From assembly GCA_947383215.1 (NCBI GenBank), contig CANDCP010000005.1, positions 1-64,000 on the forward strand: 64,000 nt of DNA. Direction: 5' to 3'. The position numbers and the translations under genes are program-made. Positions 30,106 to 38,739 of this stretch are shown here, in pieces. The stretch comes from an uncultured Roseburia sp. GTDB lineage: Bacteria; Bacillota; Clostridia; Lachnospirales; Lachnospiraceae. Positions within the stretch are counted from its first letter, which is position 1, and the number at the start of each line of letters is the position of its first letter. The notes beneath the pieces were generated by a model. That model was not told the DNA's origin. It saw only the letters and a program-made list of their open reading frames with translations, and made no database searches.

Positions 30106-31191
30106 TTAAAAAAGGCAATTTATTAGCCTGTCATTGTCTTTCGGATTCATAAAACAGAAGCGGATGTATTTGTTGTCAAGAAACGGGAAAGTAGAGCAGT
30201 CCCGTATCATCATGCCCTGTCTGATAGCGATATCGAACATGTCCTGTGAGGTGATATCCTCCTTGAGCAGACGGACCAGAAGAAAGTTGCCGGAAGGGGG
30301 ATAGACTCTAAGGTCGGCAAGACCGGAGAGATGACGGTAAATGCGGTTTCGTTCGCCGGCAATGAGTTCTTTTGTCTGTGCAATATAATCCGCGTCGCGG
30401 AACATAATCTCGCCTGCAATTACGGCGAGAGAATTGATAGTCCAGGGATTTTTGCGCGTATTGATCGCTTTGATGAGATCACGGTTGCCGGTGATGGCGT
30501 AGCCTAAGCGCAGGCCGGGCGCGGCAAAAAATTTGGAGGTGCCTCGTAAAATAATAATATTATTGTAGTAATTTGTCAGAGGAACAGAAGTAATCGTTTC
30601 CATATAATCTGCAAATTCCACATAGGTTTCGTCTACCATAACAAAAATATCATGCTGCTTGCAGACGTCCAGGATGCGGCGCATTTCTTTGTTGGTGATA
30701 CACGAAGACGTCGGATTATTGGGATTGCAGATTACGACGAGGTCAATGTTTTCATTGAGCCGTCCGGTGAAATCTTCTACGTTAAGCTTAAAGTTTTGAT
30801 TTTCCTGCAGCGGGTAGTAAAGCGTCGTGCCGCCGCCGAGGGAAATCTCGCGTTCATATTCCGAGTAGGTCGGACCGACAATCAAGGCTTTTTTTGGATG
30901 CTCCAATTGGATAAACAGAGAAATTAATTCTGTCGAACCGTTTCCGACAATAATATTTTCTGCCTCTGTGTGGGCGTAGTCCGCCATGCAGCGGCGAAGG
31001 GCGTTGTATTCGCGGTCGGGATACGCGGTGATCGCGTCGATATGGCTGGCGAGCGTCGCCTTTAGTTTTGGAGATACGCCCAATGGATTGACATTTGCGG
31101 AAAAGCTGATGATATCCTCTTTTTTGACGCCATAGATTTGTTCGATTTTTTCCAAATCGCTTCCATGAAAATGGTCACTGTGTTTTATCAT
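30106..31191 (-). CDS. PLP-dependent class II aminotransferase (HisC/CobD-like)
   Basis: 361 residues from the ATG at 31191, which has GGAGG upstream; the longer frame has none. Fold type I signatures: FSANVNPLG, VGNGSTELI, VICNPNNPTS, VDETYVEF and the PLP lysine in GTSKFFAAPGLRLGYA. It resembles histidinol-phosphate aminotransferase and threonine-phosphate decarboxylase. No histidine or cobalamin genes are nearby, so the substrate is open. Diverges from the 31.3 kb operon. Confidence 0.85.
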   Translation of the reverse strand: MIKHSDHFHGSDLEKIEQIYGVKKEDIISFSANVNPLGVSPKLKATLASHIDAITAYPDREYNALRRCMADYAHTEAENIIVGNGSTELISLFIQLEHPKKALIVGPTYSEYEREISLGGGTTLYYPLQENQNFKLNVEDFTGRLNENIDLVVICNPNNPTSSCITNKEMRRILDVCKQHDIFVMVDETYVEFADYMETITSVPLTNYYNNIIILRGTSKFFAAPGLRLGYAITGNRDLIKAINTRKNPWTINSLAVIAGEIMFRDADYIAQTKELIAGERNRIYRHLSGLADLRVYPPSGNFLLVRLLKEDITSQDMFDIAIRQGMMIRDCSTFPFLDNKYIRFCFMNPKDNDRLINCLF

Positions 31192-31257
31192 AATTAAGAC
31201 CTCCAATATTTTGGGGTTGCGATTTCTGCACAATAAAAACGTGTGTGAAGACAAAAG

Positions 31258-31286
31258 TTGCAGGAATCTTTTAAATAGTTTATAAT
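31258..31286 (+). promoter_or_regulatory. Promoter of the 31.3-38.7 kb operon
   Basis: TTGCAG (31258-31263), 17 bases, TATAAT (31281-31286), about 70 bases before the first gene. Confidence 0.7.
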
Positions 31287-31355
31287 CTATTATAACTGTA
31301 ATGAAAGAAAAAGCAACCGGTGGAATTAAAATATCGGTTGGAAGCAGGTGTGATT

Positions 31356-34300
31356 TTGCGTAAACGGATTCAAAAACTGGCACGTGGACAATTTGAACAC
31401 AAGGAGCCTGTTCTCACATTTTCTACGGATAAAATAGAAATTGCGGTATCGGAGGGACGGGATTATACGGGAGACTTTGTCATAAGCAGCCCTGATTTTG
31501 CTACGATAAAAGGTCTTGTGTATTCTTCGAATCCTCATATGGAATGTCTGACGCCGCAGTTTCAGGGAGAGGAGATCAGGATTCGGTATCAATTTCATAG
31601 CGAAGGATTTGTGGAAGGCGATATTCAGAAAGGAGAATTTTTTGTTATCTGTAACCAGGGAGAATATAACCTTTCTTTTGTTGTGTCCGTCTGCCGGCAT
31701 TATGCGGACTCCTCGATCGGCAAGATAAAGACGCTGTATGATTTTACGAAACTGGCGGGCCAGGATTATGAGGAGGCGTTTAAGCTGTTTACATCGGCGG
31801 GCTTCCCGTATCTGTTTCAGGAAAATGAAAACCTGGAGCGTCTCTATTATGAGGCGTTTTCCATGCCGCCGGTCTCCATGACGAATATGGAAGAGTTTCT
31901 CGTTACGATTCATAAAAAAGAGGCCGTCCGGTTTAGCCTTAAGGATACGTCGTACGAGTTTCGCGATATAACCGCGAGTCTGCTGGAGAGCGTTGAGATA
32001 CGAAAAAATCACTGGGGATTTCTTGAATTAAGCGTAACGTCCGGGGATGCGTTTTTGATACCGGAAAAGGAGCGCCTTACGACGGAAGATTTCGTGGGGA
32101 GTATCTGTCAGGCCCGGTATCGGATCGATGCGAAACAGCTTCACGCGGGAAAGAATTTCGGCAAACTGGTTTTTGAAAATTCATATCAGAGAGAAGAAGT
32201 AAGGATTGTCGTTGTGAAGAGCCGCACGGTCCAAACGGCGCAGGATTACCTGAAAATACAGAATGCGAAAAAAGAATTGACCAGGCTTTATATAGATTAC
32301 CGGTTAAAAAAGATCGGAAACGCGATGTGGGCCGCGGACACGGTCGGATGTTTAAACCGCCTCTCATCGCTCGAGGGCGGAAACGATTGGTACAAGCTAA
32401 TGAAGGCACAGGCGTATCTGGCCGGAAAACAACGGCAGGAGGCAGAGTGGATTTTATCCGAGTATAAGAGAGCGGGAAAAGATAAGACGACGCCGGAATA
32501 CGGTTATTATCTTTATCTGTGTACGCTGTATGAGAGAGAATCCTCCTATGTAAACCGGCTTGCGGGGGAGATAGAGGAAATCTATCATAGGCATGAGGAG
32601 AGCGATCTGCTCTTTTGGATTCGCTTGTTTGTAAAGGAAGAATATTGCAAGGACGCGGCGTTGAAGCTGCGGATAATCGAGCAGAGAATGGCGGAAGGGA
32701 GCAGCAGCCCGTTTTTGTTTCTGGAAGCGTATTATATTTTCTGGCAGAATCCGTATCTTTTGACGAAGCTGAAAGAATTTGAGATCAAGGTACTGCACTG
32801 GGCCGCAAAGGAGGATGTGCTTACCGGGGACCTGGCGGTAAATATCGTGGGGCTTTCCGGCAGTGTGCGGACGTATCAGCCGCTGTTTTACCGGGTGCTT
32901 GCGTCTTTTTACGAGAAATATAAGCTCACAGAGCTTTTGTCCGCGATTTGTTCTTATCTGGTACGGTCCCAAAGATTTTCCCCGAAATACCACGAGTGGT
33001 ATGAGCTCGGGATTGAGGAAGATCTGCGGATTACGGGCTTAAATGAAGCGTATTTGATGTCGATGGATCTTTTGAACACGAAAAAGCTTCCGAAAACGGT
33101 GCAGATGTATTTTCGGTATAATACGTCTGTTCCCTACAAACAAAAGGCGGCGCTCCTTGTAAATATTATTGCGGGCAAAGAGAAAGAGCCGTCCGTTTAC
33201 CAGAGCTATCATAAAGTGATGGAAGAGTTCGCGATCGAGCAGATTATGGAAGGGCATATGGATGATAATCTGGCGGTTATCTACGGTGAAATGCTTGAGC
33301 GGGGTATGATTGAAAAGTCAATGGTTCCGGCGCTCTCTAAGATTCTCTATACGCATAAGCTGACCGTATTTTCCGGTGCGTCCACGGTCTATGTGATTCA
33401 CCGCCAGCTGAAGGAGGTCCAGGTGGTTCCGGTAGTCCGCGGCGTGGCGTATTTTCAGCTTTATACAAAGGATTATGCGATTGTTCTTGAGGATACCATG
33501 GGAAGGAAATATGCGGCGGGCATGGCTTACCAGCTGGAGCGTCTGTTGAATCCCGGGATGTACCTGCGCAAATGCCTGGAGTATACGCCGTATGAAACCC
33601 CGTTTCTCTTACATTATTTTTCCGGAAGGGAAAAGAGCACCATGTTTATGCCGGAAGAGAAAAACTATTTGATCGGGCTGTTTGACGATCAGAGCCTTCG
33701 GGAGACCTACCGGGCGAGGCTCTATCCGGAGATGATACGTTTTTTGGAGCGGATGGAAGAGAGGGAGCTTGTAGAGGCGTATTTAAGGCAGGCGCCCATC
33801 CGGCTTTGTACAAGAGAGGCGAGAACATACCTGATGGAAGAGCTGATTGCGTACCGCGAGTACGACAAGGCATATGAGTATGTGAAAGAGTACGGCGTCG
33901 GCCAGCTCTCCCCTGCAAAGCTGGCGAGCCTGTGCAGTTATGAGATAGAGGCCTATGAGATGGAGGAGGACGACTTTTTAATCAATCTGGCGTCCTATGT
34001 CTTTTTGCACGGCAAGTACGATAACGCTGTGCTGGCCTATCTGGAAAAGTATTACGGCGGGACCACGAAGAATTTAAAAAGGCTCTGGCGCGCCTGCTAT
34101 GCGTTTGAAATTGACAGTTTTGAATTAGAAGAGCGGCTTTTGGTGCAGATGCTTTATACGACGGAATTTGTAGATAACGTTGAGCAGGTGTATGAGAGTT
34201 ATTGCGCGCACGGCGGCATTTCTCTTGTGCGGGAAGCGTATCTGTGCTATTTCTCCTATATTTATCTTGTAAAACAGACTGTTGTCCCCAATCATATTTT

Positions 34301-34886
34301 CCCGGAGATCATGCAGCGAATTTGTGAAGAGAAGGAAGTGCCGGATGTCTGCTGCCTTGCTCTGCTGAATTATTTTGCCGAGGAAAATGAATGGTCCGAA
34401 GAGAAAATAAAGGTTACGATGGGGATTCTGGAAAATTATGTGAATCGTGGGATGTATTTTGCCTTTTATCGCAGGTTTCCGGAAAAAATCAAACATTATT
34501 TCCAGATATACGACAAGATCTTTTTGGAGTACCGCACATTTTCGGACCGGCGCGTGCTGCTGCATTATCGCACGGATAATGAAGAGCAGTTTGTGACGGA
34601 GGAGATGCCGGAGGTGTTTGGGGGAATTTATGTGAAGACGTTTACCGTTTTTTTCGGAGAGAGTATCGAATACTACATTACCGAAGAGGGGGAAGACGGA
34701 CTTAAAGTTGTGGAGAGCGAGCAGATTGTGGGAAGAGAGGCGGGCGGCAGAGACGATAGCCGCTACGAACTGCTGAATACCATGCTGTTTGTGCGTACTC
34801 TCGGAGATAATGAGCGCTTAAGGGAGCTTATGATTTCCTATGAGAGACGGGAGAAAGAAAACGAGCTGTTATTCCGTATGATCTAA
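31356..34886 (+). CDS. Large DUF5717-like protein: beta-sandwich plus helical repeats, unknown function
   Basis: 1176 residues from TTG 31356, with GCAGGTG upstream; GTG 31320 is the alternative. No signal peptide or membrane span, so predicted cytosolic. Residues about 20-130 and 210-310 look like beta-sandwich domains (FSTDKIEIAVSEGRDYTGDF; VRFSLKDTSYEF). From about 310 to 1090 the chain is a series of helix pairs with TPR-like spacing (LYYEAF, AYLAGKQRQEAEWILSEYKR, EYDKAYEYVKEYG). I associate it with DUF5717, a Lachnospiraceae family without a known role. The shape suggests a scaffold that receives partner proteins, probably those encoded next. Confidence 0.75.
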   Translation: MRKRIQKLARGQFEHKEPVLTFSTDKIEIAVSEGRDYTGDFVISSPDFATIKGLVYSSNPHMECLTPQFQGEEIRIRYQFHSEGFVEGDIQKGEFFVICNQGEYNLSFVVSVCRHYADSSIGKIKTLYDFTKLAGQDYEEAFKLFTSAGFPYLFQENENLERLYYEAFSMPPVSMTNMEEFLVTIHKKEAVRFSLKDTSYEFRDITASLLESVEIRKNHWGFLELSVTSGDAFLIPEKERLTTEDFVGSICQARYRIDAKQLHAGKNFGKLVFENSYQREEVRIVVVKSRTVQTAQDYLKIQNAKKELTRLYIDYRLKKIGNAMWAADTVGCLNRLSSLEGGNDWYKLMKAQAYLAGKQRQEAEWILSEYKRAGKDKTTPEYGYYLYLCTLYERESSYVNRLAGEIEEIYHRHEESDLLFWIRLFVKEEYCKDAALKLRIIEQRMAEGSSSPFLFLEAYYIFWQNPYLLTKLKEFEIKVLHWAAKEDVLTGDLAVNIVGLSGSVRTYQPLFYRVLASFYEKYKLTELLSAICSYLVRSQRFSPKYHEWYELGIEEDLRITGLNEAYLMSMDLLNTKKLPKTVQMYFRYNTSVPYKQKAALLVNIIAGKEKEPSVYQSYHKVMEEFAIEQIMEGHMDDNLAVIYGEMLERGMIEKSMVPALSKILYTHKLTVFSGASTVYVIHRQLKEVQVVPVVRGVAYFQLYTKDYAIVLEDTMGRKYAAGMAYQLERLLNPGMYLRKCLEYTPYETPFLLHYFSGREKSTMFMPEEKNYLIGLFDDQSLRETYRARLYPEMIRFLERMEERELVEAYLRQAPIRLCTREARTYLMEELIAYREYDKAYEYVKEYGVGQLSPAKLASLCSYEIEAYEMEEDDFLINLASYVFLHGKYDNAVLAYLEKYYGGTTKNLKRLWRACYAFEIDSFELEERLLVQMLYTTEFVDNVEQVYESYCAHGGISLVREAYLCYFSYIYLVKQTVVPNHIFPEIMQRICEEKEVPDVCCLALLNYFAEENEWSEEKIKVTMGILENYVNRGMYFAFYRRFPEKIKHYFQIYDKIFLEYRTFSDRRVLLHYRTDNEEQFVTEEMPEVFGGIYVKTFTVFFGESIEYYITEEGEDGLKVVESEQIVGREAGGRDDSRYELLNTMLFVRTLGDNERLRELMISYERREKENELLFRMI

Positions 34887-34916
34887 GGCAGCCCGGGAGT
34901 GAGAGGAAGGTGAAGC

Positions 34917-36146
34917 ATGGAAAAAAGAAAGCTATATGCAGGTTTGGATATCGGAACCAGATATGCGATGATCAGTTATTATATGCTTGGAATGAGCGAG
35001 CCGGAGACGGTAAGCCGCATCGCGGGGGGCGAGGTCTATCAGATTCCGCAGCTTCTCTACAAAAGAGAGGGGATCGGGCAATGGTTTTACGGGGAAGAAG
35101 CGGCGAAGACGGCAAAAAAGTATTCGGATGTTCCACTGGACAAGCTTTATCTGCGCGCCAGGGATCAGGAGAGCGTGGTGTTGGACGGACAGAGCTATAC
35201 GTATGTGGAGTTGTTTGCGCTTTTTATCCGAAAAATGCTGATGCTGGCGGCAAAGCTGAACCCGAATGTGCAAATTGAGCAGCTTGTATTGACAACGGAT
35301 TCCTTAAACCGGGAAAATATGAAGCTGTTTGCGGCAGTGATGGAAAAACTGGATATTGCGCCGGGGCATTTTACGGTGATCGATTATCCGGAGAGCTTCT
35401 ATTACTACGCGCTTAGTCAGAAGAGGGAATTGTGGCTTCATGATACGGCGATGTTTGATTACGGAAAGAGCGGGCTTTTATATTTTTATATGGAGCGGAA
35501 AACGAAGACAACGCCGCAGCTTGTATCTGTGATGGAAAGAAATTTAGGGCAGCTTGAGGGCGATAAGGATGAGGCGTTCTTGTCGGTATTGCCCGAGGCG
35601 TTTGGAAAACGGATTTTTTCCTCCGTATATCTGACGGGAGACGGATTCGACGGGGAGTGGATGCGGCAGTCGCTGAAGTATCTTTGCCGGAACAGGCGGG
35701 TATTTCTTGGGAAAAACCTTTATACCAAGGGGGCCTGTTATGCGGCAATGGCGGCCGGAGAGGTTAAGCCCTGGAATTTTGTCTATATCGGTGAAAATGA
35801 GATGAAATTCAATGTCAGTCTGAAGGTGCGGGGGGCGAAAGGGCTGGCGTTTTATTCTCTGATTTCGGCCGGAGATAACTGGTATGAGGCTGCGGGGGAG
35901 TGCGAAATCCTCTTGTCGGGGACGCGCGAGGTTGATTTCTGGCTGCAGGCGGCGGACAGCAGGGAGGCGAAGATTCATACCCTGGAATTGACGGATTTGC
36001 CTAAGCGGCCCGATAAGATGACGAGACTTCGGATTACGGCAAAGCCGTTATCGGATTCCTCGGTGAAGATTGTGATAAGAGATCTGGGATTTGGGGAACT
36101 CGTAAAAAGTTCGGATAAGAGCTGGGAGTATACGATGGAATTTTAA
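34917..36146 (+). CDS. DUF5716-like protein with degenerate Hsp70/actin ATPase fold
   Basis: 409 residues, cytosolic. The order of elements copies the Hsp70 nucleotide-binding domain: phosphate-1 loop AGLDIGTRYAMISYY (D11), helix plus strand VQIEQLVLTTDSLN, VIDYPESFYYYAL (compare EPTAAAL), phosphate-2 loop MFDYGKSGLLYFYM (D181), adenosine region VYLTGDGFDGEWM (from about 238) and KGACYAAMAAG. The GGGT of phosphate-2 and GGSS of the adenosine loop are changed, so ATP binding may be weak or lost. Residues 285-409 form a beta-rich domain, the position of the Hsp70 substrate domain. I associate it with DUF5716. 30 bases after the large protein. Confidence 0.72.
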   Translation: MEKRKLYAGLDIGTRYAMISYYMLGMSEPETVSRIAGGEVYQIPQLLYKREGIGQWFYGEEAAKTAKKYSDVPLDKLYLRARDQESVVLDGQSYTYVELFALFIRKMLMLAAKLNPNVQIEQLVLTTDSLNRENMKLFAAVMEKLDIAPGHFTVIDYPESFYYYALSQKRELWLHDTAMFDYGKSGLLYFYMERKTKTTPQLVSVMERNLGQLEGDKDEAFLSVLPEAFGKRIFSSVYLTGDGFDGEWMRQSLKYLCRNRRVFLGKNLYTKGACYAAMAAGEVKPWNFVYIGENEMKFNVSLKVRGAKGLAFYSLISAGDNWYEAAGECEILLSGTREVDFWLQAADSREAKIHTLELTDLPKRPDKMTRLRITAKPLSDSSVKIVIRDLGFGELVKSSDKSWEYTMEF

Positions 36147-36158
36147 GGAAGTGAAGCG

Positions 36159-36914
36159 ATGGGAGAATTGATTTTGTGCTGCGGAGGTATCGCCGCATTG
36201 CCGTATTATATTGAAGACGCTGATTTAAATATTTATTCTCTGGAAGAGCTTTGTTATTATATAGAGAATTTTCCCGACAGGCTGGATATGGATTTTTGGA
36301 ATGAGGAGCTTTGTCAGTGGCTTGCCAGGGAGCTTTCTTTAAGCGGGCTCGCCGCAAAAATCCGAACGGCGAAGCAGGAATTTGCCGAGACGGCCGAGGT
36401 TGTCCGCGTTGTTCTGGAGGAGAGCGCTTATTTTGAGCCGGAGGGACGGCGGGAGATTGTCAGACAGTTGTCGGAGATTGAACACAAAGATGAGTTTGAG
36501 CGCGGCAGGTTAAAGGCCGACCGTTTTCTGAAAAACCATCGGTATGCGGAAAGCATTTTAGAGTACAGAAAGCTTTTGCAGCAGTCTTTGAACCAGTCGT
36601 TTCGCGCGGCAGAGATTGGAAATATCTGGCATAATATGGGCGTTGCGGCGGCGCGGATGTTTCTGTACGAGCAGGCTATGGAATGTTTTGAACGGGCGTA
36701 CGAGTATAACAATAATCCCGAGTCTATGCGGGAAATGTATTTTGCCAGGCAGTATGTTTTTCGGGAGGATGACGAGAAACTGCCGGAGGAGTGGAAGGAC
36801 CAGGTGAGAGAGGCGCTGCGGCAGGCCGGGGAGGCGACAAAACACATCGCCGCGCCAAGAGAAGAACAGATTGAAGAGTGGAAAAAGCGTTATCGGGTAT
36901 ACAGCAGGCAGTAA
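36159..36914 (+). CDS. TPR-like helical protein, unknown function
   Basis: 251 residues. The N-terminus (MGELILCCGGIAALPYYIED) is not a clear signal peptide. Residues 110-190 carry a TPR pair (ERGRLKADRFLKNHRYAESILEYRKL and GNIWHNMGVAAARMFLYEQAMECFERAYEYN). The C-terminus is charged. It lies 12 bases after the actin-like gene and 29 bases before the coiled-coil gene, so it is part of the same system. Likely a protein-contact module. Confidence 0.7.
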   Translation: MGELILCCGGIAALPYYIEDADLNIYSLEELCYYIENFPDRLDMDFWNEELCQWLARELSLSGLAAKIRTAKQEFAETAEVVRVVLEESAYFEPEGRREIVRQLSEIEHKDEFERGRLKADRFLKNHRYAESILEYRKLLQQSLNQSFRAAEIGNIWHNMGVAAARMFLYEQAMECFERAYEYNNNPESMREMYFARQYVFREDDEKLPEEWKDQVREALRQAGEATKHIAAPREEQIEEWKKRYRVYSRQ

Positions 36915-36943
36915 GCTTTGAATGCGCAGTAATGGAGAAGAAA

Positions 36944-38122
36944 ATGAAATTATTCAGGCGAAGAAGAAAAAAAGAGAAAAAAAGTATTGACGATATTTTG
37001 GAACAGGTGTCGGAGGATCTGCTTTCACCGGAGGATATGCAGGACGACAGGAAGGTGCATCACTATGTATTAAATCATTGCGAGCTTCTGATTGATACGG
37101 CGAAAGAATTGGAGGAGCAGAAATCGGAATATCGCGTAGTCACCTCGTATCTGAAAGATATACAGATGATCGAGGAGATGCCGGAAAAAGAGACCGGTAT
37201 TTTAAGAGACGCGGCTTCTAATATCGTCGCGCTCAATGAGTCGAGGGACTCGTATTTACAGACGACGAAAAAGATTAACGACCTTCAGTATGCACAGATG
37301 GAACAGGATGAGGAAGAAGTGATACGGGCCATACAGACGCTGCAGTCGAACGAAATGTATCAGGCGGCAGTCAAACGCGATATGCAGTATCTGGAGGGGG
37401 AAAAGACCGAATGGATCTATTACAGACAGGAGCTTTTGAATGAGCAGAAGCTGATGCGCCGCCTCGCGTATATTTTGTTTGGCGTGTTTTTGATGCTGAT
37501 GTCCGTTATTCTTGTGCTTCGGATGGGCTTTATTATGGATGTCACATACCTGTTCATTCTTCTCGTGGCGTCAGGCGCGCTTGGCGGGGCGTCCATTTTT
37601 GTGCGGATGCAGAATAACCGGGTAGATATCAAAAAGGCGGAGGCAAATACAAACCGGGCGATTATTCTGCTGAATAAGGCGAAAATTAAGTATGTAAATT
37701 CTACAAATGCAATTGATTATACATGTGAGAAATATCATGTAAAAAATTCCTACGAGCTGAATTATATTTGGGAGCAGTATATGGAAGCGAAGCGTGAGAA
37801 AGAGAAATTTGAGCGGGCGAGCGACGATCTTGATTATTTCAACGGCAGGCTTGTGCATTTGCTGAAGCAGTTTCAGCTCTACGATGCCAAAGTCTGGGTA
37901 AGTCAGCCGCAGGCGATTGTGGATAAGCGCGAGATGGTGGAAATCAAGCATAATCTTTTGGAGAGAAGGAAGAAGCTGCGCGGGCGGATTGAATATAATA
38001 TGGACGTGGTACTGGAGCAGAAAGAAGAGATTGAGAAGCTGATGAAGGAAGTGGGAGCCGATATTCCGGAGGTAAAAGAAATCATCGCTTCCGTAAATAA
38101 GCTGTGCGGGCTTGAAAATTAG
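36944..38122 (+). CDS. Coiled-coil protein with central pair of membrane spans
   Basis: 392 residues from ATG 36944 (GGAGAAG upstream). A very basic start (KLFRRRRKKEKK) is followed by a helical region, two adjacent spans (about 174-195 and 199-220, with LFGVFLMLMSVILVL and YLFILLVASGALGGASIF), then a long coiled coil to the end. Both long arms are predicted cytosolic. It could anchor the cytosolic proteins of the operon to the membrane. No family recognised. Confidence 0.7.
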   Translation: MKLFRRRRKKEKKSIDDILEQVSEDLLSPEDMQDDRKVHHYVLNHCELLIDTAKELEEQKSEYRVVTSYLKDIQMIEEMPEKETGILRDAASNIVALNESRDSYLQTTKKINDLQYAQMEQDEEEVIRAIQTLQSNEMYQAAVKRDMQYLEGEKTEWIYYRQELLNEQKLMRRLAYILFGVFLMLMSVILVLRMGFIMDVTYLFILLVASGALGGASIFVRMQNNRVDIKKAEANTNRAIILLNKAKIKYVNSTNAIDYTCEKYHVKNSYELNYIWEQYMEAKREKEKFERASDDLDYFNGRLVHLLKQFQLYDAKVWVSQPQAIVDKREMVEIKHNLLERRKKLRGRIEYNMDVVLEQKEEIEKLMKEVGADIPEVKEIIASVNKLCGLEN

Positions 38123-38134
38123 AAGGAGATTTTT

Positions 38135-38674
38135 GTGGACGGGTCGATATTGTTGTGGATTCAGGAGCATATCAGGAATCCGTATTTAGATGAGATTGTG
38201 ATTTTTATTACCCATCTGGGCGACGCAGGGTGGTTTTGGATTGCGTTGACGTTTATCATGTTGTTGTTTGGAAAGACAAGGAGGGCGGGCATTGTTTCTG
38301 CGCTTGCCCTTTTTTGTTCCCTTGTGGTCAATAATGGGATTCTAAAAAATGTTGTGGCCCGTATACGGCCTTATGAGCAGATAGACAGCCTGGTGTTAAT
38401 GATAGAAAAGCAGGTGGATTTTTCTTTTCCGTCGGGGCATTCCGCAGCTTCGTTTGCGGCGGCGACGGCAATCTGCTTAAATCTGCCGAAACGCTTCGGA
38501 ATACCGGCGCTGATTCTTGCCGCTCTCATCGCCCTTTCGAGGCTTTACGTCGGCGTCCATTATCCGACGGACGTTCTGTCTGGCGCGGTGAGCGGGATTG
38601 CCTGCGCATGGCTGGCGCAGCTTATCTTTGGTACCGTTCGAAGAAAGCGTCAAGAAAAAATACTTGACACATGA
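38135..38674 (+). CDS. PAP2-family membrane phosphatase
   Basis: 179 residues from GTG 38135 (AAGGAG upstream), five or six spans. Phosphatase motifs: K-x6-RP (KNVVARIRP), PSGH ([11 protein letters not shown]) and SR-x5-H-x3-D ([12 protein letters not shown]). Acts on lipid phosphates, possibly undecaprenyl pyrophosphate in cell-wall recycling. Twelve bases after the coiled-coil gene, suggesting it is the last gene of that operon. Its 3' end contains the next operon's promoter. Confidence 0.9.
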
Positions 38675-38729
38675 TTTCTTTTGCGGTATGATACAATCTG
38701 TTGATGTCAAGAAGAAATACTTGACATCA
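38649..38729 (+). promoter_or_regulatory. Two dyad repeats 57 bases apart around the ylxM promoter
   Basis: Copy 1: GTCAAG-N8-CTTGACA (38649-38669). Copy 2: GTCAAG-N8-CTTGACA (38706-38726), same 21 bases but for one; its arms extend to ten perfect pairs (TGATGTCAAG 38702-38711, CTTGACATCA 38720-38729). Copy 1 covers the -35 box; copy 2 lies at the transcript start. Confidence 0.6.
38664..38692 (+). promoter_or_regulatory. Sigma-A promoter of ylxM-ffh operon
   Basis: Consensus TTGACA (38664-38669), 17 bases, TATGAT (38687-38692), within the 3' end of the PAP2 gene. Confidence 0.8.
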
Positions 38730-38739
38730 CGGATTTTAT

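What the first reader, a model, noticed from the sequence alone, without database searches (positions are those of the whole stretch)
31356..38122. Uncharacterised four-gene system: giant helical scaffold, actin/Hsp70-like protein, TPR protein, coiled-coil membrane anchor
Seen: four tightly spaced genes behind one promoter (TTGCAG-17-TATAAT), with gaps of 12-30 bases. The products are a 1176-residue beta-sandwich plus helical-repeat protein, an Hsp70/actin-fold protein, a TPR-like protein and a protein with two spans and long cytosolic coiled coils; a PAP2 lipid phosphatase ends the operon. Known: actin-like proteins with membrane coiled-coil partners often form cytoskeletal or envelope-assembly machines. 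Inferred: a membrane-tethered scaffold, perhaps linked to lipid-carrier recycling. I recall DUF5717/DUF5716 labels but no function. Best candidate for an undescribed system.
Basis: partly seen in the sequence, partly recalled or inferred. Interest (0 to 1): 0.8.

Follow-up and report, generated by a model that had tools for sequence, protein, structure and literature searches.

The report
Motorless relic of an Hsp70 machine
Nearly all sampled members of a major gut-bacterial family carry this undescribed gene cluster, and related families suggest it is the cut-down remnant of a larger chaperone machine that kept its scaffold and one inactive-looking Hsp70 but lost its ATP-driven parts.

Summary
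The giant protein (A) is DUF5717; the Hsp70-like protein (B) is DUF5716. Of 299 genomes of the window's family (Lachnospiraceae), 292 have both, 5 neither, 2 one. A-B-C order held in 41 of 41 loci, but C was not found in 3 of 15 loci with the weakest A. D is optional; PAP2 is no member.

In sister families of the order the cluster is larger: A in two parts, Hsp70 (H1), a GrpE fusion (X), the DUF5716 protein (H2), Hsp70 (H3), Hsp70-vWA (H4), C and sometimes D. Outside the family A and X co-occur in 59 of 61 genomes that have either (adjacent in 43); X is in 0 of 15 family genomes. B falls inside H2 in a tree and lacks key Hsp70 phosphate-binding residues; H1, H3 and H4 keep them, and all lack the Hsp70 lid.

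So the window's operon is most likely the reduced form of a dedicated, lidless Hsp70/GrpE machine. I think it is a scaffold around a pseudo-Hsp70, membrane-tethered where D exists. I found no description in the papers searched.

The parts
31258..31286 (+). possible promoter TTGCAG-17-TATAAT before A
   Evidence: read; weak -35, scan not above shuffles
31356..34886 (+). A: 1176-aa DUF5717 protein; N-terminal part (about 300 aa, probably beta-sandwiches, inferred) = A1 of sister families; the rest a TPR-like helical solenoid = A2
34917..36146 (+). B: 409-aa DUF5716 pseudo-Hsp70 (degenerate nucleotide-binding region plus a DUF5716_C end that overlaps the Hsp70 match in H3; no lid), falls with H2
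36159..36914 (+). C: 251-aa TPR protein with a conserved N-terminal motif (YSLEELCYYI); one open frame with B in two other genomes
36932..38122 (+). D: 396-aa two-span membrane protein with long charged, helical-looking flanks; optional member
38135..38674 (+). PAP2 phosphatase: neighbour, not a member
   Evidence: PAP2 E 3e-24; not conserved next to the operon

Best explanation
The operon is most likely a reduced descendant of a dedicated Hsp70/GrpE machine found, as far as sampled, in one bacterial order only. In sister families the machine has three lidless Hsp70s with intact ATPase motifs (H1, H3, H4; in H4 a vWA domain sits where the lid would be), a GrpE-domain protein (X), a degenerate Hsp70 (H2), a probable beta-sandwich protein and a TPR-like solenoid (A1, A2), a TPR protein (C) and in some families a membrane coiled-coil protein (D). 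In Lachnospiraceae A1 and A2 are fused in nearly every locus seen, H2 is B, and H1, X, H3 and H4 are gone from every locus examined. Shown: gene content, order, co-occurrence, loss of motifs, missing lids, grouping of B with H2, natural B-C fusions. Inferred: that the long form is ancestral; that A, B and C form one complex, with B as a non-hydrolysing structural or regulatory subunit touching C; that A's solenoid holds clients or other subunits; that D ties the complex to the inner membrane where present; that in sister families H1/H3/H4 with X drive ATP-dependent loading or remodelling on this scaffold. In Lachnospiraceae that step is either lost or done by housekeeping DnaK.
For: Cluster maps (19 of the 60 A-positive sister genomes fetched, picked by hand, many on long contigs): H1 in 18 of 19 loci; H4 in 15 of 15 downstream stretches (one frame-disrupted); C in 14 of 15 at E 4e-20 or better (one of them frame-disrupted), the 15th at E 0.1; D in 4 of 15. 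Domains (locus L171): H1 HSP70 5e-71, H3 HSP70 8e-58, H4 HSP70 5e-94 + VWA 1e-11, X GrpE 1e-08; X profile hits PDB GrpE 4ani (1.5e-06). Co-occurrence in 146 genomes of the order: own family A 15 of 15, X 0 of 15; other 131: both 59, A only 1, X only 1, neither 70. Family: 292 both A and B, 5 neither, 2 single of 299. Motifs: K70, E171, T12, G198, T199 kept in 18/18 H1, 16/16 H3, 14/14 H4; 0 of 18 sister H2 at each; in 121 family B proteins 0, 0, 1, 8, 4. Lid: medians of 15 and 22 residues after the substrate-binding beta domain in H1 and H3 against 145 in the genome's DnaK; 181 in H4, where the vWA lies. Tree: one branch (99/95) holds all 12 B and 11 of 12 H2 rows, B inside. B-C fusions in L077 and L216. 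Over the same 28 genome pairs H1/H3/H4 are 71-75% identical, A1, A2, X, H2, C 24-37%.
Against: No structure, interface, localisation or ATP-binding result. Phosphate-1 Asp (112/121) and an adenosine-loop Gly (120/121) persist in B, and a Glu two columns from E171 is conserved (111/121), so nucleotide binding is not excluded. A and X are close (within 5 kb) in 43 of the 59 genomes that have both, on different contigs in 15 and about 45 kb apart in 1 (my reading of the places); in family f77 they are apart in 11 of 14, so the long cluster is broken up there or the assemblies are. D was found in 18 of 41 loci and 2 of 15 weak-A loci, so tethering through D cannot be universal. C was not found in 3 of those 15. 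In G264 B stands without A or C beside it. The beta-sandwich reading of A1 rests on sequence pattern; Pfam gave no convincing known fold. H2 and B rows have long branches; one H2 row (L164) fell outside the group.
Confidence: 0.6

Rival explanations
1. A cytoskeletal or envelope-assembly machine in which B polymerises like MreB or ParM and D anchors the filament.
For: Actin-Hsp70 superfamily relationship; D is a two-span membrane protein with long charged flanks.
Against: B's profile hits DnaK, not actins, and it groups with an Hsp70 paralogue. Nucleotide-loop residues are lost. D is often absent.
Confidence: 0.12
2. A biological-conflict (anti-invader) system related to the HSP70/GrpE theme of GAP1-N2 GTPase systems (PMC7159879).
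For: Same kinds of parts: HSP70, GrpE, a second HSP70 without its peptide-binding domain, a beta-rich protein fused to TPR (section 29 of that paper; vWA occurs in its other themes); fast divergence of A, B, C, X.
Against: GAP1-N2 found in 0 of 14 genomes tested; no PADLOC hit for A-D; near-universal, mostly single-copy presence in the family instead of patchy.
Confidence: 0.16
3. A chaperone-independent scaffold: Lachnospiraceae kept A-B-C for a role that has nothing to do with protein folding.
For: X is missing from 15 of 15 family genomes and from sister genome G551, and H1, H3, H4 from the loci examined, while A and B persist.
Against: Two family loci lie next to an HSP90 gene and one sister locus near hrcA, a weak hint of a chaperone link.
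Confidence: 0.12

Closest known systems
Pfam DUF5717_N/DUF5717 (PF18984, PF18983) and DUF5716_C (PF18980)
   Same: A and B match them over the modelled length
   Different: their descriptions give no function and no link to Hsp70 or GrpE; here DUF5716_C overlaps the end of the HSP70 match in H3
DnaK-DnaJ-GrpE chaperone system
   Same: H1, H3, H4 are Hsp70s with intact ATPase residues; X has a GrpE domain
   Different: no lid, no J-domain in the cluster proteins scanned, several Hsp70 paralogues plus a degenerate one, giant scaffold, vWA in the lid position; in Lachnospiraceae no intact Hsp70 left in the operon
GAP1-N2 GTPase-centric systems, HSP70/GrpE theme (Kaur et al. 2020, PMC7159879; section 29 and keyword passages read)
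   Same: HSP70 + GrpE + second HSP70 without peptide-binding domain + FNIII protein fused to DnaJ or TPR
   Different: GAP1-N2 in 0 of 14 genomes; near-universal in the family; 'Lachnospir' occurs 0 times in its main text and the DUF5716/5717 search did not list it

Membership tests
Hsp70 family (for B) | sequence homology to Hsp70 | tested here: met
   profile hits DnaK chains, E 4e-05; groups with H2 among Hsp70 paralogues; single B proteins do not reach Pfam HSP70 (1 of 16, E 0.12)
Hsp70 family (for B) | ATPase motifs (phosphate 1 and 2, K70, E171; numbering and roles recalled from DnaK literature) | tested here: not met
   K70 0/121, E171 0/121, T12 1/121, G198 8/121, T199 4/121; D8 112/121 kept
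DnaK-DnaJ-GrpE system (long cluster) | Hsp70 with intact ATPase motifs | tested here: met
   H1 18/18, H3 16/16, H4 14/14 at the sites tabulated
DnaK-DnaJ-GrpE system (long cluster) | GrpE-type exchange factor | tested here: met
   GrpE in the X of L161, L162, L165, L171, the four scanned (E 1e-08 to 3e-13); PDB GrpE 1.5e-06 for the profile of 16
DnaK-DnaJ-GrpE system (long cluster) | alpha-helical lid | tested here: not met
   Pfam HSP70 match stops at 485-492 of 599 in L171; medians of 15 and 22 residues remain in H1/H3, vWA in H4
DnaK-DnaJ-GrpE system (long cluster) | J-domain partner | tested here: inconclusive
   none in the cluster proteins scanned; the rest of the genomes not searched
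GAP1-N2 HSP70-theme conflict system | GAP1-N2 protein | tested here: not met
   0 of 14 genomes (13 sister, 1 own); control rings in 1 of 14 well-known genomes
actin-like filament former (MreB, ParM, FtsA) | closest homology to actin-like families | tested here: not met
   no such Pfam hit at E 1 for 16 B proteins; only DnaK among 5 PDB hits
actin-like filament former (MreB, ParM, FtsA) | polymerisation | not testable with these tools
   needs protein
known anti-phage defence | match to PADLOC models | tested here: not met
   0 families for A, B, C, D; H1-H4 and X not scanned

The most novel reading that the evidence does not exclude
A new class of membrane-associated scaffold or coat in bacteria: a beta-sandwich plus alpha-solenoid protein whose assembly is run by a private set of lidless Hsp70s in much of the order (with a vWA domain taking the place of one lid), and which in Lachnospiraceae became a permanent, ATP-independent structure held by a dead Hsp70.
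Probability: 0.2. Interest if true: 0.93.

Novelty: new variant of a known kind. Interest (0 to 1): 0.75.

Why it matters
Lachnospiraceae are among the most abundant bacteria of the mammalian gut (general knowledge). A near-universal, fast-diverging core operon of unknown function there is a gap in basic biology. The sister-family cluster turns two 'unknown function' families into parts of a testable Hsp70 machine, shows a vWA domain where an Hsp70 lid would be, and gives a natural case of a chaperone machine that seems to have lost its motors and kept its scaffold, in Lachnospiraceae and apparently again in the sister genome G551.

Tried and rejected
PAP2 as a member: rejected. Defence library: no hit for A-D. 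GAP1-N2 system: no GAP1-N2 in 14 genomes. Heat-shock control by CIRCE: none in the window; three of the loci held carry one (L051 before an HSP90 gene, L174 beside hrcA, L196 the genome's dnaK region), none directly before A. A1 against Pfam and PDB: only weak, scattered hits, ubiquitin included; not used. Literature searches: DUF5717/DUF5716 (one irrelevant paper listed), Lachnospiraceae signature proteins (42, none), Hsp70+GrpE+vWA+conflict systems (48, PMC7159879), Hsp70+GrpE+von Willebrand+operon+Clostridia (67, none), Lachnospiraceae + Hsp70-like + hypothetical protein + essential genes (76), pseudo/DnaK paralog/GrpE-like (82, top 12 of 577 listed), Lachnospirales+Hsp70+operon (87, none), Hsp70+GrpE+gene neighborhood+vWA (88, 10 of 15 listed), lidless or pseudo Hsp70 (89). 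Only PMC7159879 was opened; the others were seen as listings. Mistakes found: one row labelled HscC was a wrong ORF, so the table was redone without it (same picture); that set counted L180, an own-family gene, as H2, corrected but still labelled H2 in the tree; the 880-aa control labelled AlaRS is a valyl-tRNA synthetase.
Full report
Observation. A is DUF5717_N + DUF5717 over its whole length, B is DUF5716_C, C has a weak TPR match, D no family above cut-off. The promoter is plausible but weak. PAP2 follows D by 12 bases here, but the same-genus genome G299 has A-B-C-D without it; it is labelled beside the operon in no other map and has one distant hit in the 80 named loci.

Spread and synteny in the family. 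The DUF5717 model matches 293 of 299 family genomes, 243 of 246 of good quality. DUF5716_C also matches 293 of the same 299: both 292, neither 5 (G272, G334, G341, G371, G467), DUF5716 alone 1 (G264, 67% complete), DUF5717 alone 1 (G389, 68% complete). In G264 the genes beside B do not match A or C although the contig continues. In the 80 named loci, chosen by a B match, A is found in 80, C in 77 (the three misses have at most 569 bases of contig after B) and D in 72; of the eight D misses seven lack room on the contig and one, L158, has room. In 15 own-family loci picked for weak A matches (of 20 such genomes searched), B follows A or is fused to C in 15, C was detected in 12 (not in L219, L221, L224) and D in 2. 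B and C are one open frame in L077 and L216.

The long form in sister families. In 146 genomes of the order the DUF5717 model matches 75 (74 over its cut-off): 15 own family and 60 of other families. I fetched 19 of those 60 (the twentieth locus, L180, is own family), picked by hand from the listed matches, so they are not a random sample. A1 is a separate gene in 13 of 19, fused to A2 in L162, and in the five f92 loci A is one frame of 931-1006 aa in which the A1 model matches only in part (four) or not at all (L164). Behind them lie H1, X, H2, H3, and further downstream H4, C and sometimes D. H1 is seen in 18 of 19; L179/L223 (G551) has only A1-A2-H2, and X is absent from that genome, which looks like a separate reduction. 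In 15 downstream stretches H4 is found in 15 (in two frames in L186), C in 14 at E 4e-20 or better (in two frames in L186) and at E 0.1 in L185, D in 4 (L184, L185, L186, L192). Pfam on L171: H1 HSP70 5e-71; X GrpE 1e-08 at its C-terminus; H2 DUF5716_C 6e-14 and HSP70 1e-05; H3 HSP70 8e-58 with DUF5716_C 2e-10 on its last part; H4 HSP70 5e-94 followed by VWA 1e-11. X's profile hits the GrpE of PDB 4ani. A2's profile hits designed TPR solenoids, and the sister C scanned has strong TPRs.

Co-occurrence of the new parts. X was sought in the same 146 genomes: 62 matches, of which G568 and G595 cover only the GrpE end in 202- and 207-aa frames and are ordinary GrpE by size. With those two set aside, outside the family A and X are both present in 59 genomes, A alone in 1 (G551), X alone in 1 (G646, 67% complete), neither in 70; inside the family A is in 15 of 15 and X in 0 of 15. 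By the places listed, X lies within 5 kb of A in 43 of the 59, on another contig in 15 and about 45 kb away in G602. Some of these are contig ends, but in family f77 the two are apart in 11 of 14 genomes, so the cluster is probably split there. HSP70 searches in 14 genomes: the eight own-family genomes show DnaK, at most one or two further Hsp70 hits and MreB-type hits, none at the operon; the five sister genomes with the cluster show three or four more at it, and the sister genome without A (G556) does not.

Outside the order nothing was found. A2's profile in 245 genomes of the class gave the 9 own-family genomes plus one weak TPR-type hit (G149, 338 aa, E 2e-10); in 299 genomes of the phylum only the 4 own-family genomes. 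The two other-family order members in the class sample had none. Other phyla were not searched.

B is a pseudo-Hsp70. With E. coli numbering (recalled), K70, E171, T12, G198 and T199 are kept in 18/18 H1, 16/16 H3 and 14/14 H4, in 0 of 18 sister H2 at each site, and in 0, 0, 1, 8 and 4 of 121 family B proteins. D8 (112/121) and one adenosine-loop Gly (120/121) persist, and a Glu two columns from E171 is conserved (111/121), so binding of a nucleotide is not excluded. A maximum-likelihood tree of 62 sequences has one branch (99/95) with all 12 B rows and 11 of 12 H2 rows; B lies inside, next to the H2 of G540 and of an f92 genome; H1, H3 and H4 are each one clade; the twelfth H2 row (L164), with a very long branch, falls outside (L180, an own-family row, is labelled H2 there). 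The tree is unrooted and B and H2 branches are long.

Lidless Hsp70s. After the substrate-binding beta domain the genome's DnaK has 145 residues; the medians are H1 15, H3 22, H2 13, B 14; H4 has 181, which is where its vWA domain lies.

Two speeds. Over the same 28 pairs of sister genomes H1, H3 and H4 are 75, 71 and 74% identical, A1, A2, X, H2 and C 24, 26, 25, 37 and 33%. In the family, over shared pairs, adenylosuccinate lyase is 83% identical (20 loci), PurF 65% (12), valyl-tRNA synthetase 80% (5) and the neighbouring aminotransferase 52% (18), while A, B and C are 33-36% on the first, second and fourth sets (39-49% on the third). A widely kept but fast-diverging scaffold around a slow engine fits a machine whose motors are constrained and whose scaffold follows changing partners; that is inference.

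Mechanism. I commit to a scaffold with a structural pseudo-Hsp70, linked to the membrane where D is present, once served by its own Hsp70s and exchange factor. The B-C fusions make direct B-C contact likely. In four sister loci a gene just before A1 codes for N-terminal membrane spans and a probable coiled coil, which may be another anchor. What the scaffold builds or holds is unknown.

Comparison. The nearest described arrangement I found is the HSP70/GrpE theme of GAP1-N2 systems (PMC7159879; section 29 and keyword passages read). The parts are alike, but GAP1-N2 is absent from all 14 genomes tested and the spread is housekeeping-like. I file this as a new variant: Hsp70 machines are a known kind; this lidless, multi-paralogue one and its motorless descendant were not found in the papers searched (open-licence library only).

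Noticed in passing
window 30106-31383 (-): Divergent aminotransferase-like gene next to A; a reverse 360-400 aa gene sits at this place in many family loci, and the one scanned (L049) is Aminotran_1_2, so the site looks vertically inherited.
   Followed up: partly
window 38640-38730: A strong promoter-like site (TTGACA-17-TATGAT at 38664) at the end of the PAP2 gene, beside an inverted repeat at 38702-38729, ahead of ylxM-ffh.
   Followed up: no
L051:2304-4256, L041:2231-4279: An HSP90 gene lies 126-127 bases before A on the same strand in two genera; in L051 a CIRCE-like element precedes it.
   Followed up: partly
L063, L055, L216, L219, L220, L222: A gene of about 442 aa lies before A in six family loci; the one scanned (L063) is a rarA/mgsA-type AAA+ ATPase. 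Meaning unknown.
   Followed up: partly
L161:12828-14150, L166:13027-14247, L174:4709-5650, L176:4419-5483: Just before A1 in four sister loci: proteins with N-terminal membrane spans and only weak hits to coiled-coil-type models; possible stand-in for D.
   Followed up: partly
L165/L186 (G540): The sister genome whose H2 is closest to B has a short X (279 aa, GrpE) and H4 and C in broken frames, as if caught losing the chaperone genes, or an assembly error.
   Followed up: no
family f77 genomes (G541, G561, G573, G602, G611, G620, G628, G635, G642, G649, G664): A and X lie on different contigs or far apart in 11 of 14 f77 genomes with both: the long cluster may be split in this family.
   Followed up: no
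G272, G334, G341: Three good-quality family genomes lack both A and B; what else they lack was not examined.
   Followed up: no
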